Shown in pieces: positions 1 through 62,403 of a stretch of 64,000 nt of DNA; the first letter of the stretch is position 1, and every line of letters starts with the position of its first letter. A program made the translations under genes and the position numbers. Source of the stretch: a virus; IMG/VR virus record IMGVR_UViG_3300035670_000121, positions 21,616 to 85,615 of that record; one strand, given 5' to 3'. The notes beneath the pieces were generated by a model, which worked only from the letters and a program-made list of their open reading frames with translations, searched no databases and had not been told where the DNA came from.

Positions 1-1
1 G

Positions 2-12928: not shown

Positions 12929-14685
12929 ATTTTTTACAAGATATTCAGAGTTATGACGACGCAATGTTGCCGGGTGTAAGATTGCCTCAAATATCAATCG
13001 ATAGTAAATATTATGATTTACTGAAGATTCCAACGTCTTCAGATAATTTTACTTTTCTTAAAACTTTATGCTATCGCAGTTTAGAGAATAAGAATCTAAA
13101 TAAGAAAGAGTATGTAGATAGATTAGAGATGGAGTTGCAGATTTTTCATGAACTTGATTTCGTTGATTATGTGTTACTGAATTGGGACATTCTTAATTTC
13201 TGTCACGAAAATAATATTCCAACTGGTCCCGGTCGAGGTAGCGCTGCGGGTTCATTGGTTTTGTTTTTGGTTGATGTCACTAAAGTAGATCCAATTCGAT
13301 ATGGACTTTTCTTTGAGCGATTTGTGAGTAAGTCTCGCGCAAAGAAGATTATCAAAAACGATATTACATATCTTGATGGCTCGCTATTGCCAGACGTAGA
13401 TAACGACATTAGTTATGATCGCAGAAGTGAGGTTATTAAATATATTGAAAACAAGCATTTTGGTAAAACTTCAAAAATCTTAACTCTTAATACTTTATCT
13501 AGTAAACTTTGTATCAAAGAGTGCGGTAAAATTGTTGGCGGTTATTCTGAAACGGAAGTAAACGAAATTAGCGATCTAATTCCAAAACAATTCGGTCGCG
13601 TTTTTGGCTTAGAAGAAGCCGCTAAGGAAAACGATAAGTTTAAAAAGTGGTGCGACGATAATCCTAAGCTATTTAAAATAGCTAAGAAAATTGAAGGCTT
13701 AAACAAGAATACTGGTGTTCATCCTTCTGGTATTGCTATTTCTTATTACAAGATAGATGAAGTTTGTCCTGTTCAGAAAACTTCAGATGGAGATTTAGTT
13801 AGCGGATATGATATGAATTATGTCGCTGAACTAATGGTAAAATTTGATGTTCTTGGATTAAGAACTTTAACTGTTGTTAATGAAGTATGCAAAATGTTGA
13901 ACATGGATATGACAAGTATCGATCCTGAAGATCCATTTATATATGAAAATTTGCAAAATCTAAAGACTCCTCAAGGTTTATTCCAAATTGAAGCTGATAC
14001 TAACTTTAAAGTCTGTAAAAAAGTTAGACCAAAGTCGCTTGAACAATTAAGCGCTGTTATTGCTATTGCTAGGCCGGGTGCATTAGATTTTGCTGATCAA
14101 TACGCCACTTATTCGGCGTCTACAATAGCGCAAGTAGTTCATGATTTTTTTCAAGAAGAATTATTATACACTGGTGGTATTCCTCTGTATCAAGAACAGT
14201 TAATGAAAATGGCTGTACGCTTAGGATTTACTCTGGATGAAGCTGAACAATTAAGACGTATTGTCGGCAAGAAGAAGGTAGACCAAATGCCTCAATGGCA
14301 AGGAAAAATTCGTCAAAAAGTCATTGAACAGAATCTTGATCCTGCTATTGGTGATGTATTATGGAAAGTTGCAGAAGATTCTGCCAATTATAGTTTTAAT
14401 AAATGTTTATTACCTGAAACCCTGGTTGAAACGAAATCTGGATTTAAATGTTTAAATGATGTCAAAAAAGGAGAAATGGTTTTAGCGTATGATGTTGATA
14501 ATGATAAAGATCATTATGTAGAAGTTGTAAACATTCATCAAAATGAAGTTGAAGTTTACGAAGTAGAAATGGAAGACGGAACAAAAATATCATGTTCTAT
14601 GGATCATAAGTTTCTATGTCAAGACAGAAAAATGCACACTCTTAGAGAAATAATTTCCCATAATTTAGAAATTATGTGTAAATAA
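12925..14685 (+). CDS. dnaE: DNA polymerase III alpha, N half, fused to split N-intein
   Basis: Residues 1-493 (to base 14403) are the palm, thumb and fingers of a bacterial C-family polymerase without PHP: GPGRGSAAGSLV, catalytic Asp pair in LLPDVDNDIS, third Asp in VKFDVLGLRTLT. The protein stops being polymerase after YSFNK; Cys at 14404 starts 93 residues of N-intein: block A (CLLPETLVET) and block B (GTKISCSMDHKFLC). It then ends, so the gene is broken at the conserved FNK/SHS site. The C half lies beyond an endonuclease gene (from 15619). Protein trans-splicing is needed to make a full polymerase. Start ATG 12925 is coupled to the exonuclease stop. Confidence 0.93.
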   Translation: MNFLQDIQSYDDAMLPGVRLPQISIDSKYYDLLKIPTSSDNFTFLKTLCYRSLENKNLNKKEYVDRLEMELQIFHELDFVDYVLLNWDILNFCHENNIPTGPGRGSAAGSLVLFLVDVTKVDPIRYGLFFERFVSKSRAKKIIKNDITYLDGSLLPDVDNDISYDRRSEVIKYIENKHFGKTSKILTLNTLSSKLCIKECGKIVGGYSETEVNEISDLIPKQFGRVFGLEEAAKENDKFKKWCDDNPKLFKIAKKIEGLNKNTGVHPSGIAISYYKIDEVCPVQKTSDGDLVSGYDMNYVAELMVKFDVLGLRTLTVVNEVCKMLNMDMTSIDPEDPFIYENLQNLKTPQGLFQIEADTNFKVCKKVRPKSLEQLSAVIAIARPGALDFADQYATYSASTIAQVVHDFFQEELLYTGGIPLYQEQLMKMAVRLGFTLDEAEQLRRIVGKKKVDQMPQWQGKIRQKVIEQNLDPAIGDVLWKVAEDSANYSFNKCLLPETLVETKSGFKCLNDVKKGEMVLAYDVDNDKDHYVEVVNIHQNEVEVYEVEMEDGTKISCSMDHKFLCQDRKMHTLREIISHNLEIMCK

Positions 14686-14689
14686 TAGT

Positions 14690-15637
14690 ATGAACAATGT
14701 TAAATATAATGATTCAATAAAATTCATATCTATTAATTATTTCGATATATGTCAGCTTGATGGAAAATCAAAAAAAGAAATAATTAATTTATTTCCTAAA
14801 AGGCAAGATGGTGCTTATTATTTGAATAAATTTATTAATTATATCGAAAAATATTATAAAATTTCAATTCAAGAATATGTATTTAAATATTTAAATATTA
14901 AATGGCCTACATGCCCAGTTTCAAAAGAAAAAGTTGGTTTTCGAGTTAACGGAAAAGGAATTTTCTTTTCAAAATTTAAAAAGGGTAAAGTTTGTAAAAA
15001 ATATTCTACAGCTTTTCAAAAAGCTTGCGAAAAATTTTCTCAAAATAGAAAAGGTAAAAACAATCCAATGTTCGGAAAAAAATCTTGGAATTCGGGTTTA
15101 TCAAAAGACTCTGACGCGAGAATAAAAAAAATATCCGACGAACGAAAAGGAATTGTTTTTAAGCAAACACATAAAAATAAACTCAAAGAAGCTAGAGCAA
15201 ATCATCCGTTAAAAGCTCGGCACGTCACTAAACATACTGATGAGTCTAAGAAAAAAATGAGAGAAGCCACTATTAATAGATGGCAAAAAGGTGATTTTAA
15301 TTTTAAAAAAACAAGTATAGAAAAAAAAGTTGAACAATGGTTGTTAGATAATAAGATCGATTTTCAATTTCAATATAATGTTGATTATTTTATAGCTGAT
15401 TTTGCTTGTTTGAATGAAAAAATCTTGATAGAATGCCAAGGTGATTTTTTTCATTGTAACCCTCATTTTGAAAAATATAAAAATCCAAAATATGAAGTTC
15501 AAAAGAGAAATGTTTTTCGAGATAAAATAAAAAAACAAAAATACAAGCAATTAGGTTGGAAACTTATAGAATTATGGGAATCAGATATTAATTCTGGCGA
15601 ATTTAAAAATATACTAAAATGCGAACTCAAAAAATAA
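14690..15637 (+). CDS. EDxHD/Vsr-like homing endonuclease inside fractured dnaE
   Basis: 315 residues, starting 4 bases after the N-intein stop and overlapping the C-intein gene by 19 bases. The middle has NUMOD3-like DNA-binding motifs (NNPMFGKKSWNSGLSKDS and a repeat near HTDESKKKMREA). The C-terminal ~100 residues form a Vsr-like nuclease: Glu in TSIEKKVEQWL, Asp in YFIADFACL, ECQGDFFHC, then a C-terminal GWKLIELWESDI. This matches the EDxHD family known from 'fractured genes' with split inteins. It presumably cuts intact dnaE alleles and spreads the break together with itself. Confidence 0.9.
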   Translation: MNNVKYNDSIKFISINYFDICQLDGKSKKEIINLFPKRQDGAYYLNKFINYIEKYYKISIQEYVFKYLNIKWPTCPVSKEKVGFRVNGKGIFFSKFKKGKVCKKYSTAFQKACEKFSQNRKGKNNPMFGKKSWNSGLSKDSDARIKKISDERKGIVFKQTHKNKLKEARANHPLKARHVTKHTDESKKKMREATINRWQKGDFNFKKTSIEKKVEQWLLDNKIDFQFQYNVDYFIADFACLNEKILIECQGDFFHCNPHFEKYKNPKYEVQKRNVFRDKIKKQKYKQLGWKLIELWESDINSGEFKNILKCELKK

Positions 15638-16806
15638 TTTCAATTAAATCTTTAGGAAAAAGAAAAACTTTAGATTTAGAAGTAAATCATAAAGATCATA
15701 ATTTTTATGCTGAAGGTCTTGTTTCGTCAAATTCACATTCCATAAGCTATGCTATTCTTGCGGCTTGGACGACTTACTTGAAGTTTAAACATCCAAAAGA
15801 ATTTTTTCTAGCTTTATTGAAGCTTTCTAAGTTTGAGCCTGATTCTCATAAAGAAATTAATAAAATATCAAAAGAGTTAATGTTTTTTGATATTGAATTG
15901 CTTCCTCCTGACTTAGCTAAATCTGCAATCGATTTTAATATTGAAGATAAGAATATTCGATTTGGATTAAATTCTATCAAAGGTGTTTCAGAAAAGACGC
16001 TTGAATCACTTCAGCAATTTAGAGAAACCAATACTCCTAATAAGTTCGATATCTTTATTACAGCTAAACAAGCTGGAATCAATATTGGCTTATTGTCTTC
16101 TCTGATTCAAGCTGGAACATTAAGCTCTTATACTCATCGTAGATCAAGATTGGTTCTCGAAGCTCAAACGTTTAATCTACTTACAGACAAAGAAAAGAAG
16201 TACGCTTATTCTATTGGAGATAAATATAATTACGATATTCTCACAATCGTTAGCGAATGTGCTTTTAAGAATAAGAATATAAATCAAGATGGTAAGCCAT
16301 TCATGTCAGATAAAAGAAAGGCGACCTTCAAGAAAAAGTACGATGAGTATAAGAAAATATATGATCAAAACAAGAATCATGAAAAATTTGCTAATTGGGT
16401 ATTCGAAAACAAACTGCTTGGTTATACTCCATCTATTAAACTGAAAACTGTTTTTGAACAACCTGAAGCTACTTTTACTGATACTTTAGAATTTCAATCT
16501 ACTTTAAAGAATGATTTAGTTAAAATTGTTGGAGTTGTAGATGATGTTTATAAAGGAAAGAGTAAAAAGAGTAATAATCAATTCTTTAGAATTGCTTTGA
16601 AAGATGAAGTTGGAACCGTGATGGGTTTATTTATGGATGGTGGAAAAAAAGCTCGTTTATCAGAGTATTTAGAAGATGGCTTAAAGATTCCAGAAAAAGA
16701 AAACATTGTAGTTTTTACTGGACGAAAAGGTGATGATGTGTTATGGATAGAGAACATTGCAATACTTGATGATAAAATCTATATGAAGCTATCTGACGTA
16801 GAATGA
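15619..16806 (+). CDS. dnaE: Split C-intein fused to DNA polymerase III alpha, C half
   Basis: Residues 1-38 are a C-intein: a KRKTLDLEVN strand, HNFYAEGLVSSN block F/G ending in Asn38 (bases 15730-15732), with Ser in place of the usual penultimate His as in cyanobacterial DnaE inteins. Ser39 (15733) is the +1 extein nucleophile and begins SHSISYAILAAWTTYLK, the direct continuation of the N half. The remaining 357 residues hold the rest of the fingers, the HhH region and an OB fold (LVKIVGVVDDVY, GTVMGLFMDGG). Spliced polymerase would have about 850 residues without the PHP part. Overlaps the Clp gene by 4 bases. Confidence 0.93.
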   Translation: MRTQKIISIKSLGKRKTLDLEVNHKDHNFYAEGLVSSNSHSISYAILAAWTTYLKFKHPKEFFLALLKLSKFEPDSHKEINKISKELMFFDIELLPPDLAKSAIDFNIEDKNIRFGLNSIKGVSEKTLESLQQFRETNTPNKFDIFITAKQAGINIGLLSSLIQAGTLSSYTHRRSRLVLEAQTFNLLTDKEKKYAYSIGDKYNYDILTIVSECAFKNKNINQDGKPFMSDKRKATFKKKYDEYKKIYDQNKNHEKFANWVFENKLLGYTPSIKLKTVFEQPEATFTDTLEFQSTLKNDLVKIVGVVDDVYKGKSKKSNNQFFRIALKDEVGTVMGLFMDGGKKARLSEYLEDGLKIPEKENIVVFTGRKGDDVLWIENIAILDDKIYMKLSDVE

Positions 16807-19420: not shown

Positions 19421-20569
19421 ATGAGCGAATATAATCCTCTTTACAATGTCAACGCAAACAATGATGGCAAAAACGATACATTCGATTTTGCTATGCCTGA
19501 CATTCCAGATCCAGTAGAACCAGCACAAGTCGAATTAAAAGATAAAGACGCTGTAGGTTTTAAGTTTGGTTTTATTGGAGCTGGTCAAGGAGGAAGTAAA
19601 CTAGCAGAAACCTTTTCTCAAATTGGTTATGCTAGAGTTGGCGTAATTAATACTGCTGATCAAGATTTAGCAACTATCAATGTTAAAAACAAGTTGAAGT
19701 TTGGCGAGCAACAAGGCGCTGGCAAAAATAGAGAGTTCGCCAAACAAGCATTTATTAATCACAAAGAAGATGTAGTTGATTTTATTAAACAGTCTGTTGG
19801 AACTGATATAGATCGTGTGTTTGCTGTTGTTGGAGCTGGCGGTGGCACTGGAGCTGGTGTTTGTTCAGAATTAGTTAAAACTCTTAAAGAATATCAAACA
19901 ACAGTCAAAGCTACATCTCCATACGTTGGATTGATATTGGCGTTACCTAAGCTATCTGAAGGTAAGAAGGTAAGTGAAAACGCTTATGCTACACTAAAAG
20001 AAGCTTGTAAATTAGTTGAAGATAAAATCGTTTCTCCATTAATTATTCTAGATAATGAAAAGATTAATAACTTATATCCTAAATTATCTGTAAATAAGTT
20101 CTGGCAAGTAGCAAATGCTAATATTTGTGCGTTATTTCATTTATTTAATAATATTATAACTAAAAATAGTCAATATAGTACATTTGATACAAATGATTTT
20201 CGTACTGTTTTAGATTCTGGTATTATGGTGTTTGGCGCAGCTAATATCACTGAATTTAAAAATGAAGCTGAAATTTCTAAAGCTGTTAGAGAAAATCTAA
20301 AGCGTAACGTTCTCTGTGGTGAATTAGATCTAGCTACTGGCAGTGTTGCTGCCGCTGTAGCAATCGGTGATGAAAAAACTCTAGATAGTATTCCTCAAGA
20401 ATATCTAGATAACGCTTTCAATCAATTAAATAGAACTCTAAAAACTAATAGCACAGTTCATCAAGGCATTTATAAAGGCGTTAAAGATGGTTTATCTATA
20501 TTTACTGCTATTGGTGGTATATCAACTCCAAATGGTAAATTAGAAGCGCTTCTAAAAGCTAGTCAATAA
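19421..20569 (+). CDS. FtsZ/tubulin-like GTPase
   Basis: 382 residues. Tubulin-superfamily GTPase expected to form dynamic filaments. GFIGAGQGGSKLAE opens the Rossmann-like GTP domain; the signature GAGGGTGAG (residues ~138-146) is intact; NTADQDL resembles the T3 region; and FDTNDFRTVLDSGIMVFG matches the T7 synergy-loop/H8 area that completes the GTP site of the next subunit. The first ~40 residues are a Pro/Asp/Asn-rich disordered tail. In jumbo phages PhuZ tubulin centres the phage nucleus or moves capsids; this one looks nearer to FtsZ in motifs, so the role could also be interference with host division. Confidence 0.88.
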   Translation: MSEYNPLYNVNANNDGKNDTFDFAMPDIPDPVEPAQVELKDKDAVGFKFGFIGAGQGGSKLAETFSQIGYARVGVINTADQDLATINVKNKLKFGEQQGAGKNREFAKQAFINHKEDVVDFIKQSVGTDIDRVFAVVGAGGGTGAGVCSELVKTLKEYQTTVKATSPYVGLILALPKLSEGKKVSENAYATLKEACKLVEDKIVSPLIILDNEKINNLYPKLSVNKFWQVANANICALFHLFNNIITKNSQYSTFDTNDFRTVLDSGIMVFGAANITEFKNEAEISKAVRENLKRNVLCGELDLATGSVAAAVAIGDEKTLDSIPQEYLDNAFNQLNRTLKTNSTVHQGIYKGVKDGLSIFTAIGGISTPNGKLEALLKASQ

Positions 20570-29505: not shown

Positions 29506-30462
29506 GTGCATAGGTATCTTTATATAGCTTTAAGCTGTATTATTTTAAGCGGATGCGCCGTACTTCGCGGCACTAAAGCTAATACAGCCAGTCAAACAGC
29601 TATTATCAAAGAAGAGAAAAAAGCTTTAGATATCGATAAAGCTATTCAAAATAATTCCAATGAACAGTTAAAACAAACCGCTGCTTATGCATACGGAGTA
29701 GGCTACTCATTAAATCAAGTCCAGAATCCTTCTGTTGAAGTTATAACAGCAGGCAGAATGAACGACAGAGTAGTTGCAATAGTCGGCGCTCCAAATTTAA
29801 AAGAAAGTGAAAGAATCCGCAAATTAGTCGATTATTTAAATTCCGAAATAGACAACGAACGATCTAAAGGAGAAAAAATACTAATAGAAAAAGATAAAGA
29901 AATAACCGGGCTTCAAACACAAAAAAATGAATTAGAAAAAAATTACGATGCGCAAATAGAAAAATTAATCGCACAATCCAAAGAAGTAGCTAAAAAATCA
30001 GACGAAAAACAAACCACTCTAGATTCGATGAGTGGTCTTATGGGTTTAAATGCTGTATTTTGGGGACTTAAAAAATTTTTTTTTACAACATTAACTTGGA
30101 TAGTTATATTTGCAATTATATTCTTAATTTTAAGAATCGCTTCAGCAACCAATCCGATAGCTGCTGCTGCATTTTCCATTTTTAATATTATAGGTTCATT
30201 TATAATTAATTTATTCAAAACACTCACGCCTCAAGCTTTTGGTCTATGTAATCTTGTTAAAAGTAATGACATGGTTAAATATAAAATCACATTAACTAAA
30301 ATAGTTGATGTGATTCAAGAATTTAAAACGAAAGAAGATCAGAAAGATGGCGACGAGTTCAGCTTGAATGAATTTTTAACAAAATTATCAATTGATATGG
30401 ATCAATCTGATAAAAACACTGTAAATGAAATTTTAATAGAAGAAAAGTGGAAAAAATCTTAA
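29506..30462 (+). CDS. Membrane lipoprotein with coiled coil and C-terminal membrane segments
   Basis: 318 residues, GTG start. An N-terminal lipoprotein signal ends in the lipobox LSGC (Cys17). Residues ~95-170 are a charged coiled coil (KGEKILIEKDKEITGLQTQ). Hydrophobic segments follow at ~187-210 and ~215-240, then an acidic cytoplasm-like tail. A protein with a lipid anchor at one end and membrane helices at the other could span the periplasm, as spanin-like proteins do, but this is inference. Upstream of a PAS membrane protein, 9 bases apart. Confidence 0.7.
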   Translation: MHRYLYIALSCIILSGCAVLRGTKANTASQTAIIKEEKKALDIDKAIQNNSNEQLKQTAAYAYGVGYSLNQVQNPSVEVITAGRMNDRVVAIVGAPNLKESERIRKLVDYLNSEIDNERSKGEKILIEKDKEITGLQTQKNELEKNYDAQIEKLIAQSKEVAKKSDEKQTTLDSMSGLMGLNAVFWGLKKFFFTTLTWIVIFAIIFLILRIASATNPIAAAAFSIFNIIGSFIINLFKTLTPQAFGLCNLVKSNDMVKYKITLTKIVDVIQEFKTKEDQKDGDEFSLNEFLTKLSIDMDQSDKNTVNEILIEEKWKKS

Positions 30463-31711: not shown

Positions 31712-31897
31712 ATGAACGTTTCAGAATTCGAAAGAACAAAACCAACAATCACATTAAAGAAAATTAATAATTTAATTTCTTTGATTGATGATGAAAGAGA
31801 AAAAACAGAAAATCTCTATAAAGACAGAGTTAAAAGCTTAGAAAAAATTAATGATATGCTTAAAGATTTGAAGAATAGTTTCAAAAAGGGTGAATAA
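31712..31897 (+). CDS. Small coiled-coil protein (61 aa)
   Basis: 61 residues, highly charged helix (ISLIDDEREKTENLYKDRVK). It overlaps the next start by 1 base. No family recognised. Confidence 0.6.
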   Translation: MNVSEFERTKPTITLKKINNLISLIDDEREKTENLYKDRVKSLEKINDMLKDLKNSFKKGE

Positions 31898-32550
31898 TGA
31901 GCTATCTTCAAGCAAATATACCAATACAATCAGCTTATCTTGATAAATCTTTTTTGAAAAATGAAGAAGCTGGTACGATTGATGAATATTTGCCTGTAGA
32001 AATATTTTCTATCACTTCTATTCCAAGAAGGTGTTTATTATTTAATGTAATGAGTGAATACGGCGCTCAATTTACAAGAGTGCCAATTCAATATTTAAAA
32101 AATAAACTGAATTGCGCAACTATTTATCCATTGGATTGGATACAATTATGGGATAGTTTCAGTTATTATTTCAATATAATAAGATTTGACTATTTGAAAA
32201 ACAGCAATGCTTATATAATTCTTAAAAATAAAGAAAAGATTGTAGGCAAATATGTTTTTACTATTGATTGGTGCAATAGCGAAGAATACAATTTAGGTTA
32301 TTCAGAAGTTCAAGGTGGTCATAAATTAGCTCATGTATTTTGGGGCGAAAATGGACAAATGTTCGCTCAACCTAGCAATAGATGTTTATTCAGAGATTCT
32401 GGCGCTTGGATTTCTAAAAAGTTGCCTGATGATTTTAAAACATGGAAAGTTTTCTCAAAAGAATTTACTTGTGAAGGTAATGCATATAAATGGACTGCTG
32501 GTGATGATGAATTAATGTTTTATGAATTTGACAGAGACAAGATTAACTAA
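31897..32550 (+). CDS. Conserved hypothetical phage protein (217 aa)
   Basis: 217 residues, Trp/Tyr-rich and beta-rich. The N-terminal VEIFSITSIPRRCLLFNVMS and the C-terminal GGHKLAHVFWGENGQMFAQP and NRCLFRDSGAW stretches look conserved. I recognise the type from large phages without a function. It overlaps the dCMP deaminase gene by 29 bases, so the two are co-expressed. Confidence 0.7.
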   Translation: MSYLQANIPIQSAYLDKSFLKNEEAGTIDEYLPVEIFSITSIPRRCLLFNVMSEYGAQFTRVPIQYLKNKLNCATIYPLDWIQLWDSFSYYFNIIRFDYLKNSNAYIILKNKEKIVGKYVFTIDWCNSEEYNLGYSEVQGGHKLAHVFWGENGQMFAQPSNRCLFRDSGAWISKKLPDDFKTWKVFSKEFTCEGNAYKWTAGDDELMFYEFDRDKIN

Positions 32551-37492: not shown

Positions 37493-38071
37493 ATGAATGA
37501 TGTATTTACAGATATTTATCTGAAAAAAGAATGGCAACAAATAATAGGAACTTTTTCTGGTCCCGGCGCTTCATTAGAATGCTCAAGTCCATATTTAGAT
37601 TTTTTGCAAAATTTTATTAAAGATAATAATATTAAATCTATCTTAGATATCGGATGTGGCGATTTTAATTTGATGCAACATCTAAATTTTGAAAATTTAA
37701 ATTATAAAGGCGTTGATGTCGTTCAATTTTTAGTGGAAGAAAATAATAAAAAATATTCAAAATCAAATATAAAATTTGAGCATAAAGATTTAACTACACA
37801 AAAAGAGACAGAAATTTATGATCTGATTTTAATTAAAGATGTATTTCAGCATCTTTCGTTCAAAAATATTTTTCTTATATTAGAAAACATTAAAGGTAAA
37901 AATATATTGATTTCTAATGATTATTACAAGAATTATAATTTAGATATAGATGATGGCGGTTGGAGATATGTTGATATGTCATATCAACCTTTTAATTTGA
38001 AAGGTGACTATATTTTTCAGTGGCCTGTTTTAAGCACTACTAAAAAAGTATTTCATTATAAAAATGAATAA
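37493..38071 (+). CDS. Class I SAM-dependent methyltransferase
   Basis: 192 residues. ILDIGCGDFNLMQHL is motif I (SAM-binding), NYKGVDVVQ the acidic strand 2, and YDLILIKDVFQHLSF motif IV. The substrate is not readable; no DPPY-type DNA motif is present. It overlaps a beta-helix surface protein gene by 8 bases, suggesting glycan or virion-surface methylation. Confidence 0.83.
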   Translation: MNDVFTDIYLKKEWQQIIGTFSGPGASLECSSPYLDFLQNFIKDNNIKSILDIGCGDFNLMQHLNFENLNYKGVDVVQFLVEENNKKYSKSNIKFEHKDLTTQKETEIYDLILIKDVFQHLSFKNIFLILENIKGKNILISNDYYKNYNLDIDDGGWRYVDMSYQPFNLKGDYIFQWPVLSTTKKVFHYKNE

Positions 38072-39323
38072 AAACACTCCAGAATACTACGGTTATACTA
38101 TAGGTCAAAATATAGTACCATATATTAATAAATGTATCGATGAAAATGGCGAATGTTATGTTTCAGAAGGTGAACATGTTTTTGGTCGCAATGATGAAGA
38201 ATGGCATAAAGGTCATGTTTGGTCTGATAGTTGTATAACATGGGGTTGGAATAGGCATCATAATATTAAGTTAATTGGTGCTGGTCATGGTAAAACAATT
38301 TTCAAATTAATAGATAAAGTAAATAGTAGAAATTTATTTGGAACACCTGATCCAATTATTCACATGTTATCAACAAATTATGACGTTAGTTGCGATAATA
38401 ATTTAATAGAAGGTATAACATTTGATGGCAATTACCAAAACAATCATGATATTAGTACTGTTTGCGCGATGAGGATTCGCGGTTCTAATAATACAGTAAA
38501 AAATTGTCGATTTATCAATTTTGGTGTTGGCGATAAATCAGATCATGAATGTTTTCAAGTCTTTTGTGTAGGATATGGTAAATTAGACGAAGGTTCTAAA
38601 ATATTAAATAACATATTTGAATCTGTCGGCAAAAAGAAAAATAGCAAACAAGGGCATTGTCCCGAAAATACATTTGTTGCAGTTGGCGGCAAAGCGCCAC
38701 AAATAAAATATAATACATTTAAAAACTGCGAATTTGATACAGTAAATCAACAAAGTCCATTACATGCGATTACAATTGCTGATTCTTTAAATGCAGAAAT
38801 AACAGATAATATATTTGAAAACTTTCAAGGTAATTGCATTTACATAGATAGTTGGAAAAATAAAAATGCTGTAATAGTGAACAACCGTGGTACAAATATA
38901 TGGATTTTTATAGCTCTTACGTGTCAGTATTGGCAAAATCAAGATCAAATTAGTTACAGTGAAGATTTTTGCATAGAAAACAATGAAGTTGTTTTAAGCA
39001 ATGGGGATGTATATTATCAATGGGACCGGCAACCAATTGCGTCTGTGTTTTTTGCTTATAACCATGACCCTCAATTAAATATTAATATACATACAGGATT
39101 CAAAAATGTTATTGCAAAAGATAATAAAATCACTTTAGGCCATCGAATAATTAATGGCACTGTTGAAGCAAGCAATGTTTTGAAATGTTATTGGGGATAT
39201 ATGGCAAGTACTGATAAAATCCTATTGACAAACAATCAAATTTTCAGTAATATACCTAAACCAATTGAGAAGCTATCTATCTTTAGAAGATTTATTAATT
39301 GGTTATTAAATATATTCAAATAA
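38064..39323 (+). CDS. Right-handed beta-helix protein, tail-spike/pectate-lyase-like
   Basis: 419 residues. Repeated short strands with N-x-F/I patterns (NNLIEGITFDGN, NNTVKNCRFINF, KILNNIFESVG, IKYNTFKNCEF, AEITDNIFENF) define a parallel beta-helix as in tailspikes and polysaccharide lyases. No signal peptide. The C-terminus ends with a basic amphipathic helix (RRFINWLLNIFK). Possibly a glycan-degrading or glycan-binding virion protein. The ATGA overlap with the methyltransferase indicates joint expression. Confidence 0.8.
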   Translation: MNKNTPEYYGYTIGQNIVPYINKCIDENGECYVSEGEHVFGRNDEEWHKGHVWSDSCITWGWNRHHNIKLIGAGHGKTIFKLIDKVNSRNLFGTPDPIIHMLSTNYDVSCDNNLIEGITFDGNYQNNHDISTVCAMRIRGSNNTVKNCRFINFGVGDKSDHECFQVFCVGYGKLDEGSKILNNIFESVGKKKNSKQGHCPENTFVAVGGKAPQIKYNTFKNCEFDTVNQQSPLHAITIADSLNAEITDNIFENFQGNCIYIDSWKNKNAVIVNNRGTNIWIFIALTCQYWQNQDQISYSEDFCIENNEVVLSNGDVYYQWDRQPIASVFFAYNHDPQLNINIHTGFKNVIAKDNKITLGHRIINGTVEASNVLKCYWGYMASTDKILLTNNQIFSNIPKPIEKLSIFRRFINWLLNIFK

Positions 39324-39325
39324 TT

Positions 39326-39799
39326 ATGAAGAGACTAATCGCACTACTATCTATTATTACTGCACTCACGGCCAACGCTTTGGATTTCTCCATTGTTGGA
39401 AGTGGAAACACTCAAACTCAAGGACCAACTACGCCAACACAGTTTGCTACTGGTCTTCGTTTCGAAACTTTTGTTACTGATGCTATTAGCATTGGCGCTG
39501 TTCAATCGTTTGGATTGACTGCTGTTGATAATGTATTGTTTAATACTGAAGTATTTACTGCTTACAATATTAACTATACAATTTTTGGAATGAAGAATAC
39601 TGTATTCGCTGGCGGCGATGTTAATCTAGCTTATGGCGATGGAACTCAAAGCGCGTGGAAAGCTGGACCAATTCTAGGCAATCGATTTTTCCTAACTGAT
39701 AATACTTATATTCTCGCCCAAGCTGCTTACGATGTAGCTTTGAATGGCGTATCGAATAATCAGGTTCGATATACGTTAGGTTTGGCTTTTAGATTTTAA
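39326..39799 (+). CDS. Predicted outer-membrane beta-barrel protein
   Basis: 157 residues from ATG 39326. Sec signal peptide MKRLIALLSIITALTANA, then alternating hydrophobic/polar strands (GLRFETFVTDAISIGAVQSF, NTVFAGGDVNLAYGDG, NTYILAQAAYDVAL) and a final RYTLGLAFRF, whose terminal Phe and alternating pattern match the BAM recognition signal. About eight strands would fit. Phage barrels of this kind may remodel the outer membrane or block superinfection; the exact role is unknown. Ends at a strong terminator. Confidence 0.8.
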   Translation: MKRLIALLSIITALTANALDFSIVGSGNTQTQGPTTPTQFATGLRFETFVTDAISIGAVQSFGLTAVDNVLFNTEVFTAYNINYTIFGMKNTVFAGGDVNLAYGDGTQSAWKAGPILGNRFFLTDNTYILAQAAYDVALNGVSNNQVRYTLGLAFRF

Positions 39800-39827: not shown

Positions 39828-39859
39828 ATCCAGTAGGGGCCAAACCCTACTGGATTTTT
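39828..39859 (+). terminator. Rho-independent terminator
   Basis: 11-bp stem ATCCAGTAGGG/CCCTACTGGAT, 6-base loop and T-run. Confidence 0.92.
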
Positions 39860-39863
39860 ATTT

Positions 39864-42800
39864 ATGAAATGGGTTAAATTCCTGATAGTTAGTTTATTTC
39901 TTGTTTTTAATTTATATTCGCAAGTCATAACAAATACTGCTACATTATATTCTAACGTTACTCAAGCAGATAATAGTGTTATAACAGTTCCTATTCCTAT
40001 AACTATTGTTAGAACTAATGGAAGAATTGCCGAATTGTCATTAAATATTAGTAACGTTTCTCAAAATGCAAAACAAATCAATTTAAGAGTATATGAATTA
40101 ATTTATACCACAAATGTTGTTGAGACACCGCTAACAAATTCTACTACTACTGGAGATACAACAGGTGGAAGTACTGGAGACACAACAGGTGGTACAGGCA
40201 GCACAGATGGTGGAACAACAAGTGGAGATACTGGAGGTACAACAGGTGGAACTACAGGAGGTACAACTGGAGGATCAACAACTGGTTCTACTGGCGGAAG
40301 CACAGGCGGCACAACTGGAGGAGGAACAACATCAACAAATTATGTATATGTAACAAATAGTGTTACATTAAACGTAACTTTACAAACTCAAACTGGGACA
40401 ACAAATGACGTACAGATACCCGCTCAAACTGTTTGGCATAATGATCAATTAGAAAATATATTATTTGATATAACGAGCCTTCCACCTGATGCAATTATAT
40501 TGAGATTTAGAATATTAGATTATATTTATGATGAAAACGGTAATCTAGTAGGACCACAAGGATCAGGTACAAATAGCGGAGGAAGTGGAACTGGAGGATC
40601 TGGAACTGGTACAGGTGGAAGTGATACTGGATCTGGAGATTCAGGAACTGGCGGTGCGGATTCTGGGGGCGGATCGACAAGTCCACCATCAGCAGATACT
40701 ATACAATTTCCAGTAGAAGTACTTGGTGCTGATCAACACACAGAAGAATTTAAATTAGTTCTTAATGATAATTTAAATGATATCTACGGCGCAAGATTCA
40801 CTATACACGGTTTAGGATTTACAAATAAAGCTTCGGTTAGTATTAATGGATCACAATGGATTCCATTAAATAACAGAACGGTTATATTTCCAAGAAAATT
40901 TGAAAGAATATGGGTCGGAATTGGCGGTTTTCAAAACACATTAACAATGGTATTACCATTTGCCAGTAACAACATTATTCCTAGCGTAACTAATACGATT
41001 AAATTTAAGTTTAATGATATCACAAAACAAACCGTTGGATATAGAGTATTAAATGCTGATATTGTAAGAAGACAGGATACCGCTGAAAAAGAATATACAT
41101 TTGGACATCTTACAGGCAGGTTTTATACAAATACAGTTTATAACTACACGCCTACAACACTTGCTACAACCAAGGTTATTGATGATCCTAAAAATTGGAC
41201 ACCAGCATCAAGTGATCCTGTTGTGATTAATCAAGGAAAAGATTTATGGTTTAACGGTGATATTTCAGAGCGAGGAGTTGCTTTAAATGCTAAGTGTGGT
41301 GATTGTCATTTTACAGACGGATATGATTTGAAGTATTTCAATTATAGTGATAAATCAATTATAGCACGAAGTAAATATCATGGTTTGAGCGAGCAACAAG
41401 GTTTAGCATTAGCATCTTATATTCGTAGTTTGGATGTGCCATATCAAGAAAAAGGCAGACCTTGGAATCCACTTTATCAACCCGGACCCGGCATGAGTAC
41501 TGTGCCAATTGACAATTGGGCTGCTGGTGCAGGCATGGATTGGGTATTAGATGATGATATAAAATCATTTAATTATATTTTTCCTAACGGAACACAAGAT
41601 GGAATTGTATACAATGGTGTAGTTCAACCAATAGACATAAACAAAGCATACAACATTCATGAAATACCAATTGCAATGCAACTGCCAGATTGGAATCATT
41701 GGTTGCCTAAAGTTCATTTGAAAGATAGTGCGCCTGAAATCTGGGATTGGAGTTTGACGAAAGATGGTGGCAGTGGTCGTAGATTCTTTGATTGGTTTAT
41801 GGGTAGTATACCAAAAGATCAAGGAATGAAAGGTCTTGTTCAAATAATGAGATCATATGGAGAAAATACTGGTTATCAGTTGGTTCACATGGATCAATTC
41901 TTTCAGAAGAAATATTTTGATGCTGGAAAACGAATTCAATACATGAATGACATAAGAATGGCGTATCGTCATTGGGTAACCGTAAGAACATTAGAAATCA
42001 TGCAAAAATGGAAGATGCAAGATTTGGGTCATGATATTCTTGAAGATAATGCTAATACAAGAGATCAATGGGGAGAAAGAGGAGCAAGATCATATATTGA
42101 TTTAGGTAAGTTAGATAAAATCAAAGCACAATTTGGTAACAGTTATACGAATGTATTCAATGATAGAAGATGGTTTGCGAACAGTTTGCCTTTCCATCTA
42201 GCTCCACACATTGGAAATCTTGTAGCAGTGACGGATCAAAACGATCCTAATTTCACTTATGAACCTTATGGTGATCAGTCTCCACAATGGTATCAACTAC
42301 AAATGTATCTTGATGATAGCAATAGAATGCCAGAATATAACATAATTGATTGGGGATATTTACATAACTTCTTGTGGGGAGCAACAAGTCAATGGGGACA
42401 ATTAGCAAACTACAGTTTATATACAGGTAAACACAATGCTTTACAATTCATAAACACTTTAAAATCATATGAAGCATATGCATTTAATGGAGATTACAAA
42501 GGTTTGCTTGAAGGGCTTTTAGATGATCATCATCCGCACATAAGATTATTTGGAGGTACTGTTCTTTTACATGCCGATAGTTCAAGTGCAAATAAATTTA
42601 ATGAGTTCACAATGCATTATATTGATGCGTTACATACAAAAGAAAAGAAAGACATGATGGTCGGCATGTACAATCAAATACATAAAATACAAATAGATGT
42701 ATTAGAACAAAATCCACAAATTGCAGACTATAATAATCTTACAATGTCTGAAAACTTTTTAAGATATATGGGTGGTGATCCAAATCTAATTCAAAGATTT

Positions 42801-42890
42801 GTTAATTTTAGAAAATCAAAATGGCCTAATGATACTTGGACAAGTCAGATCAAACATCTTTGGCCTCAACCATTCTATCCTGCTTTGTAA
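39864..42890 (+). CDS. Large secreted multidomain protein with c-type cytochrome motif
   Basis: 1008 residues. Signal peptide 1-19 (MKWVKFLIVSLFLVFNLYSQ). Two related beta domains (~22-90 and ~160-232) are separated by Gly/Thr/Ser-rich linkers (~95-155 and ~240-282). A third beta domain spans ~285-450. A heme-c site follows: NAKCGDCHFTDGYD places Cys478, Cys481 and His482 as CxxCH, with KDLWFNGD before and GLALASYIRSLD after, as in single-heme cytochrome c domains; Met545 or Met557 regions (GPGM, GAGMDW) might give the distal ligand. The last ~430 residues, Trp-rich and helical, are unassigned. Periplasmic heme attachment would need the host Ccm system. The unit stands alone after a terminator. 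Confidence 0.85.
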   Translation: MKWVKFLIVSLFLVFNLYSQVITNTATLYSNVTQADNSVITVPIPITIVRTNGRIAELSLNISNVSQNAKQINLRVYELIYTTNVVETPLTNSTTTGDTTGGSTGDTTGGTGSTDGGTTSGDTGGTTGGTTGGTTGGSTTGSTGGSTGGTTGGGTTSTNYVYVTNSVTLNVTLQTQTGTTNDVQIPAQTVWHNDQLENILFDITSLPPDAIILRFRILDYIYDENGNLVGPQGSGTNSGGSGTGGSGTGTGGSDTGSGDSGTGGADSGGGSTSPPSADTIQFPVEVLGADQHTEEFKLVLNDNLNDIYGARFTIHGLGFTNKASVSINGSQWIPLNNRTVIFPRKFERIWVGIGGFQNTLTMVLPFASNNIIPSVTNTIKFKFNDITKQTVGYRVLNADIVRRQDTAEKEYTFGHLTGRFYTNTVYNYTPTTLATTKVIDDPKNWTPASSDPVVINQGKDLWFNGDISERGVALNAKCGDCHFTDGYDLKYFNYSDKSIIARSKYHGLSEQQGLALASYIRSLDVPYQEKGRPWNPLYQPGPGMSTVPIDNWAAGAGMDWVLDDDIKSFNYIFPNGTQDGIVYNGVVQPIDINKAYNIHEIPIAMQLPDWNHWLPKVHLKDSAPEIWDWSLTKDGGSGRRFFDWFMGSIPKDQGMKGLVQIMRSYGENTGYQLVHMDQFFQKKYFDAGKRIQYMNDIRMAYRHWVTVRTLEIMQKWKMQDLGHDILEDNANTRDQWGERGARSYIDLGKLDKIKAQFGNSYTNVFNDRRWFANSLPFHLAPHIGNLVAVTDQNDPNFTYEPYGDQSPQWYQLQMYLDDSNRMPEYNIIDWGYLHNFLWGATSQWGQLANYSLYTGKHNALQFINTLKSYEAYAFNGDYKGLLEGLLDDHHPHIRLFGGTVLLHADSSSANKFNEFTMHYIDALHTKEKKDMMVGMYNQIHKIQIDVLEQNPQIADYNNLTMSENFLRYMGGDPNLIQRFVNFRKSKWPNDTWTSQIKHLWPQPFYPAL

Positions 42891-59398: not shown

Positions 59399-59758
59399 AT
59401 GTTTAAATTCAGAGTCTGGGATAAGAAAAAAAATAAGTATTTAGATAATAGTTATGCACAAGCTATTACAAATAATGGTAAACTAATTATTGGCGACAGT
59501 GATTACTATACTTCATTTACAAATACAAATGAAGATGACTATATTGTAGAATATTGTACCGGATATAAGTCTATAAATAATGAAGATATTTATGTAAATG
59601 ACTACATTGAGTATAAGCTAGGTTTGAAAATGGTTCGCGGGCGAGTTGTCTATGATCACTTTGCATATTATGTTGCCGAGATTCGCGGTGGTTATATGCA
59701 ATTTACTCAGCAAAATTATACAATAATTGGTAATTATAATACAAATCCTGTTAATTAA
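59399..59758 (+). CDS. YopX-like phage protein 1
   Basis: 119 residues. MFKFRVWDKKKNKYL start, CTGYKSINNEDIYVNDYI, and IIGNYNTNP end are the YopX family blocks (FRxWD, YTGLxDxNGxxIYEGDI, GNIxENPEL). YopX proteins are hexadecameric phage proteins of unknown role. First of four in this window and the most divergent in the central motif. Confidence 0.88.
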   Translation: MFKFRVWDKKKNKYLDNSYAQAITNNGKLIIGDSDYYTSFTNTNEDDYIVEYCTGYKSINNEDIYVNDYIEYKLGLKMVRGRVVYDHFAYYVAEIRGGYMQFTQQNYTIIGNYNTNPVN

Positions 59759-59764
59759 TAAAAT

Positions 59765-59986
59765 ATGAAAGCAAAATTAGAGTACAATTTGCCCGAGGAT
59801 CAATCGCTGTTTGATGCTGCCTGTAAGGCAACTGATATGCGGAGCGCCGTTTCTGATTTCGATAATGAGCTTAGAAATTGGATAAAGCACGGCCACGATT
59901 TTAAGAATGCCGACGATGCTTTAGAGAAGGTTCGAGAGTCTTTGTATGTTTACTTAAATAGTTATGGTATAAATATACATGAGTAA
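59765..59986 (+). CDS. Conserved small phage protein (73 aa)
   Basis: 73 residues: AVSDFDNELRNWIKHGHDF and LEKVRESLYVYLNSYGI. This helix pattern (E/DFDxxLR...K) is common in phage early genes. Overlaps the next gene by 8 bases. Function unknown. Confidence 0.74.
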   Translation: MKAKLEYNLPEDQSLFDAACKATDMRSAVSDFDNELRNWIKHGHDFKNADDALEKVRESLYVYLNSYGINIHE

Positions 59987-60335
59987 TTACATATTCAGAA
60001 TTTGGGATAAAGAAGCTCAAAAATATGTAATGACCGGCGCACTTTACGGATGTGAAGGTGTTGCCGGTTTATCTACTTATTTCAATCGTAAAACACATAT
60101 TGTACAACAATTTAGTGGCTTGACTGATGTAAATGGTGAGAAGATTTTTGAAGGCGATGTATTAAAATATGGAACCAAATTAGGCATTGTTAATTTCACT
60201 TATGGATGTTTTTATGTTGACAATCTTGCATTGAATGAGTTTATTTGTAATGAAATTTCTGCTTCAATGGATTATCCGTGGATTGAATTAGAAAAATTTG
60301 GTAATGTATTAGAACATCCACAATTAATTAAATGA
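59979..60335 (+). CDS. YopX-like phage protein 2
   Basis: 118 residues: YIFRIWDKEAQKYV, VQQFSGLTDVNGEKIFEGDV, then GIVNFTYGCFYVD and GNVLEHPQL. Clear YopX. Overlaps the next gene by 4 bases. Confidence 0.88.
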   Translation: MSNYIFRIWDKEAQKYVMTGALYGCEGVAGLSTYFNRKTHIVQQFSGLTDVNGEKIFEGDVLKYGTKLGIVNFTYGCFYVDNLALNEFICNEISASMDYPWIELEKFGNVLEHPQLIK

Positions 60336-60577
60336 ATAAAGATCAAAAATTTATAATGTGCGACTGTCATAGTCACGCTCTTGTTGTTGAAAGATTTGAT
60401 GACGAAGAAGAAGTTTATATTGCATTATTTGAGCGCAGATTAGATGGCAGAAAGCTGTCATTTATAGAACGAATCAAATGGTGTTGGCAAATTCTTAGAC
60501 ATGGTAATCCTTGGAATGATTTGATTGTTTTAAATAAGGAAAAGCAAAAAGAACTTGCTGAATTTTTAAATCATTAA
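60332..60577 (+). CDS. Conserved small phage protein (81 aa)
   Basis: 81 residues: FIMCDCHSHALVVERFDDEE, YIALFERR, then a helix RIKWCWQILRHGNPWNDLIV. CxCHxH may bind metal. A recurring phage hypothetical. Starts in the previous stop. Confidence 0.74.
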   Translation: MNKDQKFIMCDCHSHALVVERFDDEEEVYIALFERRLDGRKLSFIERIKWCWQILRHGNPWNDLIVLNKEKQKELAEFLNH

Positions 60578-60578
60578 T

Positions 60579-60929
60579 ATGAGTGACCGTTTTAAATTCA
60601 GAATATTTTCTTTTTTAGAAAAGTCTTTCTATTTTTTCTCTATTGGAGATTGTGAAGATGGTTATCCTCAAGGCATTGCTGGTGGAGTTAGTGAAATTCA
60701 ACAATATACAGGTTGTCACGATTCATCCAACAAAGACATTTATGAAGGTGACATTGTTAAGTGGGGTAATTTAAATTATATTGTAGAATGGAATCATACA
60801 GCTTATAAATGGCAAGGCAGATGTCCATATTATCATCCATATAATCATCCAACTACAGAACATTTTAGAGACTTAATGAATGGTGTTATTGTTGGTAATA
60901 TTTTTGAGAACAAAGAATTATTAAGTTAA
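60579..60929 (+). CDS. YopX-like phage protein 3
   Basis: 116 residues: FKFRIFSFLEKSFYFF (FRxWD changed to FRIFS), IQQYTGCHDSSNKDIYEGDI, VGNIFENKEL. YopX family with a divergent N-terminus. Confidence 0.87.
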   Translation: MSDRFKFRIFSFLEKSFYFFSIGDCEDGYPQGIAGGVSEIQQYTGCHDSSNKDIYEGDIVKWGNLNYIVEWNHTAYKWQGRCPYYHPYNHPTTEHFRDLMNGVIVGNIFENKELLS

Positions 60930-60930
60930 T

Positions 60931-61146
60931 ATGAATAAAAGTGTTACTGAATTGTGTGCCGATTATCCCAATTTGGCAGAATATATTGTTCAATTGGAGA
61001 AACGAGAAAATAAACTTCTTAGAATTTTATATATGATTCGTAGTGGGAATGCTCCCCTATATGACTCTGATGACGCTATTAATTTTCAAAACGAAGTGGA
61101 TGATATACTTGACCCGTGGATTAGAAAAAATATTAATAAAGTATGA
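60931..61146 (+). CDS. Small helical protein (71 aa)
   Basis: 71 residues (LAEYIVQLEKRENKLLRILY, AINFQNEVDDILDPW). Between YopX genes, ATGA-coupled to the next. Not recognised. Confidence 0.65.
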   Translation: MNKSVTELCADYPNLAEYIVQLEKRENKLLRILYMIRSGNAPLYDSDDAINFQNEVDDILDPWIRKNINKV

Positions 61147-61589
61147 ATAACCGATTTAAATTTAGAGTGTGGGATAAAATGAGATTACAATTCATTTATC
61201 CTCATAATGACAATCAACAACACTTTATCATTGATTTAAATGGACGCTTCCATAATTTACAAAATGGTAGCGGTGGTGAGGATTATGTAATCCAACAATA
61301 TACAGGTTTAAATGATAAAAACAATAATCCTATTTTTGAAGGTGATATTGTTTCATTTTCATATAGAGCAAGCGAACACGATATAGAAGAAGAAATCGGT
61401 AAAGTGTTCTTTTCTGAGGGTATCTTTTATTTCGGCAAAAGTTTATTTGCTTCTAATGACAGTAATTTTATTACTGAGTCAATTAAAGTAATTGGCAATA
61501 TTTTTAATCCACCCTGCAACTTCGATGCGAACAACGAGTGTTTGATTTGCGATGATATTATTGATAATTGTCAGTTTAAAAATAAATAA
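61143..61589 (+). CDS. YopX-like phage protein 4
   Basis: 148 residues: RFKFRVWDKMRLQFIYP, IQQYTGLNDKNNNPIFEGDI, IKVIGNIFNPP, then a C-terminal extension with four cysteines (CNFDANNECLICDDIIDNCQ). The most canonical of the four copies; the Cys-rich tail is unusual. Confidence 0.9.
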   Translation: MNNRFKFRVWDKMRLQFIYPHNDNQQHFIIDLNGRFHNLQNGSGGEDYVIQQYTGLNDKNNNPIFEGDIVSFSYRASEHDIEEEIGKVFFSEGIFYFGKSLFASNDSNFITESIKVIGNIFNPPCNFDANNECLICDDIIDNCQFKNK

Positions 61590-61591
61590 CC

Positions 61592-61864
61592 ATGAAATAT
61601 AAAGTTACATATTATGATTATGATACTGATTCAACGATAACTAAAAATTGTATTAATATTGATTATAATACAAATGATAAAACTTTCAGTTTTTATCCAG
61701 TAGATGATCCTCCTCGCATTTATAAATCTGTTATTATAGACCATCCAACAGTTAGTATTTGTCAAAATGATCGTGGGCTTAGAATTACTGTAGATGGTTA
61801 TCAATGTATAAAATCAGGTGGCTATTGGAAAACAAAAACAATTATTGAAAGCGTAAATAAATAG
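61592..61864 (+). CDS. Hypothetical beta-rich early protein (90 aa)
   Basis: 90 residues (YKVTYYDYDTDSTITKNC, FSFYPVDDPPRIYKSVIID, TVSICQNDRGLRITVDGYQ). Looks like a small beta sandwich. Not recognised. Confidence 0.66.
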   Translation: MKYKVTYYDYDTDSTITKNCINIDYNTNDKTFSFYPVDDPPRIYKSVIIDHPTVSICQNDRGLRITVDGYQCIKSGGYWKTKTIIESVNK

Positions 61865-61866
61865 TC

Positions 61867-62094
61867 ATGAGTTCATTTAAATATAAAAAAGTAAAAGATT
61901 ATAAGGTTGAAGTTAGAACTAAAAATAATATTCTAGTTGCAACGATGGAAGAAGATGTAGATGGATTTTTTTATTTGTGGATTGAAGACGTGAATGGAGC
62001 TTGGCATTCACAAATTCTGCGCGAACTTGCAGATAAGCTTGACAAACTCAACAGAGAGTGGGATATTAAGATCCAACAAGATATTGGAAAGTAA
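61867..62094 (+). CDS. Small early protein, paralogue of the gene at 42935
   Basis: 75 residues. DVDGFFYLWIED and LADKLDKLNREWDIKIQ align with the 79-residue protein at 42935. Function unknown. Confidence 0.72.
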   Translation: MSSFKYKKVKDYKVEVRTKNNILVATMEEDVDGFFYLWIEDVNGAWHSQILRELADKLDKLNREWDIKIQQDIGK

Positions 62095-62096
62095 TT

Positions 62097-62399
62097 ATGA
62101 CTGATTCAGAAATCAATAAAACTATTGCTGAATATATTCAATGGAAGCCAGCAATCATTCCAAGAGACATGACTGGTAAGCCATTTGAAGGATGGGATAT
62201 TCCGCCTGATTATTGCAATAATTTAAATGAAATGCATGAGGCGGAGAAAATGCTAACAGCAGAACAAGCACGTTCCTATGACAAAGAACTTCAAAAGATT
62301 GGCTTTAGAAACCGTTTAGCTGGCGCATTTTGGTTGTGGCACTTTTCGGCAGCATGGAAAGCTGAAGCATTTCTAAAAACTATCGGTAAATGGAAATAA
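62097..62399 (+). CDS. Conserved 'IAEYIQW...LNEMHEAE' phage protein
   Basis: 100 residues: NKTIAEYIQWKP, PPDYCNNLNEMHEAEKMLT, then WKAEAFLKTIGKWK. This is a frequent phage early family (PDY..DLNAMHEAE, RAEAFLxTIGKW). Function unknown. Confidence 0.82.
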   Translation: MTDSEINKTIAEYIQWKPAIIPRDMTGKPFEGWDIPPDYCNNLNEMHEAEKMLTAEQARSYDKELQKIGFRNRLAGAFWLWHFSAAWKAEAFLKTIGKWK

Positions 62400-62403
62400 T
62401 AAT

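What the first reader, a model, noticed from the sequence alone, without database searches (positions are those of the whole stretch)
39864..42890. Phage gene for a 1008-residue exported protein with a c-type cytochrome heme site
A signal peptide, repeated beta domains on Gly/Thr-rich linkers, a CGDCH heme-c motif in cytochrome-like context and a large unknown C-terminal domain. Heme c attachment happens outside the inner membrane, so the protein would act in the periplasm or at the cell surface of infected cells. Cytochromes c are very unusual phage cargo. It is a monocistronic unit after a strong terminator. Possible roles: keeping respiration going, extracellular electron transfer, or a host-derived adhesive surface protein.
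Basis: partly seen in the sequence, partly recalled or inferred. Interest (0 to 1): 0.78.

Follow-up and report, generated by a model that had tools for sequence, protein, structure and literature searches.

The report
Phage-carried exported cytochrome c protein
A large bacterial virus carries a gene for a secreted heme-binding protein from an undescribed bacterial family; the same family turns up in at least four other, unrelated phage lineages and, in bacteria, often beside genes for breaking down or building polysaccharides, so it probably alters the sugar coat of the infected cell.

Summary
ORF 39864-42890 (1008 aa) has a signal peptide, two tandem beta repeats on Gly/Thr-rich linkers and one CGDCH site, which contains its only two cysteines. 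Single-sequence searches (Pfam, NCBIfam, PHROGs, PDB, phages) found nothing. Iterative searching gave about 60 relatives in Verrucomicrobiota, Bacteroidota, Acidobacteriota, Myxococcota, Bdellovibrionota and Burkholderiales. All share a CBM-like beta domain, a one-heme cytochrome c domain (CxxCH invariant; likely distal ligand H506, 97% conserved) and a conserved C-terminal domain of unknown fold. The 'large unknown C-terminal domain' is therefore part of an undescribed family.

Relatives occur in at least four further phage lineages with terminase or portal genes. A tree needs at least four separate phage-cell changes. Purifying selection, phage-like codon usage and two other phage assemblies argue against a chimera.

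Respiration or electron export is not supported. Sulfatases, glycosidases, glycosyltransferases, beta-helix proteins and carbohydrate-binding fusions point to an exported, polysaccharide-directed redox protein. Its catalytic role is inferred, not shown. Phage-borne cytochrome c genes have scant precedent (soxD with degraded motifs; Borg elements).

The parts
39864..42890 (+). Gene for the 1008-aa exported cytochrome c family protein
39864..39923 (+). Putative Sec signal peptide (MKWVKFLIVSLFLVFNLYSQ)
   Evidence: inspection of the translation; 88% aa identity over the first 67 residues in phage G793
39921..40151 (+). N-terminal beta repeat 1 (residues 20-96)
   Evidence: self-alignment E 1e-6
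40152..40337 (+). Gly/Thr/Ser-rich linker 1
   Evidence: sequence
40338..40559 (+). N-terminal beta repeat 2 (residues 159-232)
40560..40688 (+). Gly/Ser-rich linker 2
   Evidence: sequence
40689..41138 (+). Start of the family: beta domain (..FPVEVLG..ASVSING..GIGG..NTIKFKFN..GYRVL), CBM-like by alignment
   Evidence: A2 alignment; 17 of 35 members weakly match Pfam CBM-like PL4 domain III, best 2e-5
41226..41444 (+). Mono-heme cytochrome c domain
41295..41309 (+). CGDCH heme c attachment motif (residues 478-482)
   Evidence: 100% conserved in 58 rows
41379..41381 (+). H506, predicted distal heme ligand (inferred)
   Evidence: 97% conserved in 58 rows
41454..41702 (+). Family signature segment GRPWNP.YQPGPG ... 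QLPDWNHW
41736..42887 (+). Conserved C-terminal domain of unknown fold
   Evidence: W770, W809, Y810, D829, Y832 at least 97% conserved
39828..39855 (+). Intrinsic terminator hairpin between the barrel gene and the cytochrome gene
   Evidence: present in G793
39326..39799 (+). Small exported outer-membrane-barrel-like protein, 157 aa
   Evidence: signal peptide and C-terminal F by inspection; 97% identical in G793
38064..39323 (+). Beta-helix (pectate-lyase-like) protein, 419 aa, assigned by inspection; no significant Pfam hit
   Evidence: 89% identical in G793

Best explanation
The gene encodes an exported mono-heme c-type cytochrome of an undescribed family that phages have picked up repeatedly. 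SHOWN by sequence: family membership, invariant heme site, presence in several independent phage lineages, purifying selection. INFERRED: (1) the Sec pathway exports the protein and the host's cytochrome c maturation system attaches heme at CGDCH, with H482 and H506 as axial ligands. (2) The N-terminal beta repeats and the CBM-like domain anchor it to a cell-surface or extracellular polysaccharide. (3) The heme passes electrons to or from the C-terminal domain, or a partner enzyme, that oxidatively modifies or cleaves this polysaccharide, as secreted carbohydrate-binding cytochromes such as Cellvibrio Cbp2D/E are thought to do. (4) In infection it acts with the co-encoded beta-helix protein and small barrel to remodel or loosen the host's surface or matrix polysaccharide, helping progeny to leave and spread or changing the surface against other phages. 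Steps 1-2 are likely, step 3 moderately likely, step 4 speculative.
For: Family: CxxCH, G-DL, S, GRPWxP-QP, PDW--W, WY and other residues invariant or nearly so across 58 rows from six phyla and phages; the phage copy keeps them. Phage carriage: G000; close relative G793; 173-kb G001 sharing the gene end at 97% nt while most of the rest is 65-75% identical or unalignable; G008/G009, G010, G011 and G792 with terminase and mostly portal genes. At least 4 phage-cell changes on the tree. Selection: 8 synonymous to 1 non-synonymous change, omega 0.02 (window vs G001); omega about 0.1 (G008 vs G009). Polysaccharide link: Ochrovirga locus with 3 paralogues, sulfatases, GH95, GH3 and a GH99-like gene; Tamlana copy near GH92; Verrucomicrobiota copy near sulfatase and pectate-lyase genes; copies in Bacteroidota and Acidobacteriota glycan-synthesis clusters; fusions to CBM_4_9, Malectin, Laminin_G_3; beta-helix with K1-lyase C-terminal domain directly upstream in G008, its homologue likewise in G009, and a beta-helix two genes upstream in the window. 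Precedent for secreted CBM-cytochromes: PMC8981238, PMC12542752.
Against: No biochemical evidence of heme or activity. The Pfam cytochrome c model is only reached at E 0.06 at best, by 3 of 35 members. Burkholderia, Myxococcus and several Acidobacteria copies have no obvious carbohydrate genes nearby, so the context argument rests on part of the family. The CBM-like match is weak and absent for the window copy itself. No LPMO or other redox partner was identified in the phage. Signal peptides, the beta-helix and the barrel were judged by eye.
Confidence: 0.5

Rival explanations
1. Virion or tail-associated adhesin: the protein is a host-recognition appendage, with the cytochrome and CBM-like domains used for binding.
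For: In G008, G009, G010 and G792 the gene lies among structural genes next to beta-helix or tail-fibre-like proteins that also carry signal peptides. In the window it follows a beta-helix gene.
Against: A Sec signal peptide would send the protein out of the cytoplasm, where tails assemble. Invariant CxxCH and H506 under strong purifying selection imply heme chemistry. Cellular members are exported enzyme-like proteins with T9SS tails or lipoprotein signals.
Confidence: 0.2
2. Surface-conversion or superinfection-exclusion moron: exported protein plus small barrel change the host surface to block other phages.
For: Own transcription unit after a terminator, adjacent exported barrel-like protein, exchange between distant phages, glycan-synthesis genes in the same phage (by eye).
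Against: Does not by itself explain a conserved heme site and a conserved C-terminal domain. Compatible with the main reading as a consequence of it.
Confidence: 0.12
3. One reading: keeps respiration going or drives extracellular electron transfer during infection.
For: Heme c site and export. A PHROG named 'ferredoxin' also lies in the phage at 31897-32550.
Against: Single heme; no multiheme, porin-cytochrome or oxidase partners found in the record. Family neighbours, where informative, are carbohydrate genes.
Confidence: 0.06
4. Assembly chimera with host DNA or a decaying acquired gene.
For: At least four contigs (G001, G793, G011, L048) end inside the gene, so assemblers struggle there.
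Against: Codon usage matches the phage; left junction reproduced in G793; omega 0.02; intact ORF; no cellular relative above about 36% overall.
Confidence: 0.03

Closest known systems
Cellvibrio japonicus Cbp2D/Cbp2E (CBM plus X183/X132 c-type cytochrome domains, LPMO electron donors)
   Same: Secreted, multi-domain, single-CxxCH cytochrome domains joined by linkers to carbohydrate-binding and FN3-type domains; polysaccharide context.
   Different: No sequence relationship to the solved CjX183 domain seen with the family profile. Cbp2D also carries YceI-like and DUF1587 domains, not matched here. Never reported in phages to my knowledge.
Planctomycete-specific cytochromes (PSCyt1-3/PSD) of Verrucomicrobia and Planctomycetes
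   Same: Unknown-function c-type cytochromes, CBM fusions, sulfatase and pectin-lyase neighbours (He et al. 2017, PMC5615132).
   Different: No Pfam match to any PSCyt/PSD domain in the window protein or the 35-member set; different conserved motifs.
RoxA/RoxB rubber oxygenases and diheme cytochrome c peroxidases (from memory)
   Same: Large secreted c-type heme enzymes in myxobacteria and Burkholderiales.
   Different: Those have two CxxCH motifs; this family has one. No PDB chain of that kind matched the profile at E up to 10.
Phage-encoded soxC/soxD auxiliary metabolic genes (Kieft et al. 2021, PMC8190135)
   Same: A c-type cytochrome gene on phage genomes.
   Different: Two phage contigs only, one lacking the first and both lacking the second cytochrome motif; sulfur oxidation, not this family.

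Membership tests
c-type cytochrome | CxxCH heme attachment motif, conserved in the family | tested here: met
   CGDCH at 478-482; 100% of 58 rows
c-type cytochrome | Export across the inner membrane | tested here: inconclusive
   Clear signal peptide by inspection; relatives have lipoprotein or T9SS signals; no predictor or experiment
c-type cytochrome | Second axial ligand | tested here: inconclusive
   H506 97% conserved, no conserved Met; ligation itself not testable
c-type cytochrome | Match to a known cytochrome c profile | tested here: not met
   No Pfam/NCBIfam hit for the window protein; best member E 0.06 to Cytochrom_C
c-type cytochrome | Covalently bound heme | not testable with these tools
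   needs expression
Phage auxiliary/moron gene | On bona fide phage DNA with cellular homologues, under purifying selection | tested here: met
Phage auxiliary/moron gene | Independent transcription unit | tested here: inconclusive
   Terminator confirmed, promoter not
Cbp2D-type X183 cytochrome | Sequence homology to CjX183 | tested here: not met
   Family profile finds no such PDB chain at E up to 10
Cbp2D-type X132 cytochrome | Sequence homology to X132 | not tested
   No X132 sequence or model at hand
Planctomycete-specific cytochromes | Pfam PSCyt/PSD domains | tested here: not met
RoxA / diheme peroxidase | Two CxxCH motifs | tested here: not met
   One CxxCH in the window protein and in every full-length member listed

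The most novel reading that the evidence does not exclude
A new heme c-dependent class of extracellular polysaccharide-oxidising enzyme, taken up independently by several phage lineages as an oxidative matrix- or capsule-opening tool that complements hydrolytic and lyase depolymerases.
Probability: 0.2. Interest if true: 0.88.

Novelty: new variant of a known kind. Interest (0 to 1): 0.62.

Why it matters
Phages are known to carry photosynthesis, sulfur and carbon genes, but an intact exported c-type cytochrome family recurring across unrelated phages has, as far as the searched libraries show, not been described. The family is also absent from Pfam, NCBIfam and PHROGs, so about 60 proteins across six phyla now have a definable common core and a testable prediction: polysaccharide-linked redox chemistry with one heme. 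If phages use oxidative chemistry on host matrices, that would be a new route through biofilm and capsule.

Tried and rejected
Single-sequence searches (Pfam, NCBIfam, PHROGs, PDB, INPHARED phages) gave nothing; the breakthrough was a partial hit on a Caballeronia megaplasmid. A two-sequence alignment failed in viral contigs but worked in genome contigs. Profile search of the PDB gave only a chance hit. Considered and rejected: RoxA-type rubber oxygenase (one CxxCH, no PDB match); PSCyt (no Pfam match); chance CxxCH (invariant across the family); host contamination (codon usage, G793 and G001 junctions). I first read G793 as evidence that beta-helix, barrel and cytochrome gene move as a cassette. 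G793 proved to be a 95%-identical sibling phage with the same locus, so only the G001 match is evidence of exchange between distant phages. The literature library holds no paper I could find on this family; absence there is weak evidence.

Full report
OBSERVATION. The ORF at 39864-42890 is intact and encodes 1008 residues. It begins with a Sec-type signal peptide, followed by two diverged tandem beta repeats (E 1e-6 to each other) on Gly/Thr/Ser-rich linkers. It contains a single CGDCH, whose two cysteines are the only ones in the protein. The window is bases 21616-85615 of an 85,615-base IMG/VR virus record. The record carries phage-type RNR, DnaB, DNA polymerase, ThyX, a Clp-like protease, a virion structural protein and tail-fibre-like genes. 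A strong terminator ends 8 nt before the start codon.

FAMILY. No curated library or PDB search recognises the protein. tblastn against plasmids found a Caballeronia protein with 46% identity over residues spanning the heme site. An alignment of the two found 42 loci in GTDB species genomes; samples of Bacteroidota and Verrucomicrobiota genomes found 15 of 395 (about 11 convincing) and 3 of 387. The family is thus broad but patchy. Across 58 rows, CxxCH, G486, D488, L489, S495, Y519, G531, P533, W534, P536, Q539, P540, G555, G557, P608, W613, W809, Y810 and Y832 are invariant and H506 is 97% conserved; no Met is conserved. I infer a one-heme cytochrome c domain with probable His/His ligation. 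It lies between a beta domain that weakly resembles polysaccharide-lyase-4 domain III (CBM-like; 17 of 35 members, best 2e-5) and a roughly 380-residue C-terminal domain of unknown fold. The family profile matches no solved structure.

PHAGE CARRIAGE. (a) G793, 73.6 kb, is a sibling phage (90-95% identical, syntenic). It has the same beta-helix, barrel, terminator and first 67 residues of the gene before its contig ends. (b) G001, 173 kb, is only distantly related (24 of the window record's proteins detectable). Its contig begins inside the gene and shares the last 95 codons at 97% nt identity, with homology ending 3 bases past the stop; this indicates recent exchange between distant phages. 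(c) G008 (2257-aa protein) and G009 (2044-aa protein; the second assembly L048 differs at 1 of 9444 bases). (d) G010 (925 aa). (e) G792 (721 aa). (f) G011, whose contig ends both lie in the gene, flanking the heme region. G008, G009, G010, G011 and G792 encode terminase large subunits, and G009, G010 and G011 also portals. On a 58-row tree the five full phage copies need at least four separate changes between phage and cell. The window copy pairs, on a long branch, with a Verrucomicrobiota protein (97/89). Purifying selection is strong: 8 synonymous to 1 non-synonymous difference (window vs G001), omega about 0.1 (G008 vs G009, dS near saturation). Codon usage is that of the phage.

FUNCTIONAL CONTEXT. 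Ochrovirga pacifica has three paralogues on one contig with sulfatases, GH95, GH3, a GH99-like gene and a flavin/FMN/4Fe-4S redox protein. Tamlana fucoidanivorans has its copy near GH92. A Verrucomicrobiota copy lies near sulfatases and a pectate-lyase-like protein. Several Bacteroidota and Acidobacteriota copies lie in glycan-synthesis clusters. Fusions include Malectin, Laminin_G_3, Big and CBM_4_9 domains and T9SS sorting tails. In G008 the neighbour directly upstream is a beta-helix protein with a K1-lyase C-terminal domain, and G009 has its homologue in the same place; in the window a beta-helix-like gene lies two genes upstream, separated only by the barrel gene. Burkholderia, myxobacterial and several acidobacterial copies lack such neighbours, so the link is suggestive rather than universal.

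MECHANISM. Shown: family, conserved heme site, phage carriage, selection. Inferred: export, heme loading by the host, polysaccharide anchoring, and redox action on polysaccharide alone or with a partner. Cellvibrio Cbp2D/E is the closest functional analogue: secreted, CBM-bearing, single-CxxCH cytochrome domains required for cellulose use and able to reduce LPMOs (PMC8981238, PMC12542752). In infection the likely benefit is remodelling of the host's surface or matrix polysaccharide; this last step is speculative.

NOVELTY. In the libraries searched, phage-borne c-type cytochromes are limited to soxD on two contigs with degraded motifs (PMC8190135); Borg elements of archaea (PMC11208441, listed, not read) are a non-phage parallel from general knowledge. 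The recurrence of one undescribed exported cytochrome family across several phage lineages is new as far as I could test.

Noticed in passing
window 12910-16806: The DnaE-type DNA polymerase gene is split in two with an ORF between (14690-15637) and an intein-like junction (...YAEGLVSSNS); the sibling phage G793 has an uninterrupted 855-aa gene here and lacks about 1.3 kb. Looks like a split intein with a homing endonuclease.
   Followed up: partly
L047, L049, L050, L098 and G009 (L074-L076): Many beta-helix and tail-fibre-like proteins in these phages begin with clear signal peptides, which is odd for parts that should assemble in the cytoplasm.
   Followed up: partly
L002 start, L102 end, L051/L068 both contig ends, L048 end: At least four independent phage contigs end inside the cytochrome gene, suggesting a mosaic or multi-variant stretch that breaks assembly.
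   Followed up: partly
L049 9246-10383: A 379-aa insertion in the C-terminal family domain, absent from L047 and the other members, without Pfam match; its start is confirmed by a second assembly (L048).
   Followed up: partly
L047 8479-10299: The G008 cytochrome protein continues into a CBM_4_9 domain inside a possibly TIM-barrel glycosidase-like region (the latter by eye only).
   Followed up: partly
window 31897-32550: Strong match (2e-42) to a PHROG named ferredoxin.
   Followed up: no
window 29506-30462: Lipoprotein with weak matches to Cor superinfection exclusion and spanin PHROGs.
   Followed up: no
window 19421-20569: Tubulin/FtsZ-like protein, weak match to PhuZ (E 0.003).
   Followed up: no
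G000 upstream of the window (L052) and window 1-200: About 12 kb of glycosyltransferase, nucleotide-sugar epimerase and aminotransferase-like genes (by eye): a phage-borne surface-glycan synthesis cluster.
   Followed up: no
window 59399-62400 versus L002 2000-5000: YopX-like small ORFs shared at 82-99% nt identity with the otherwise distant G001; a second hotspot of exchange.
   Followed up: partly
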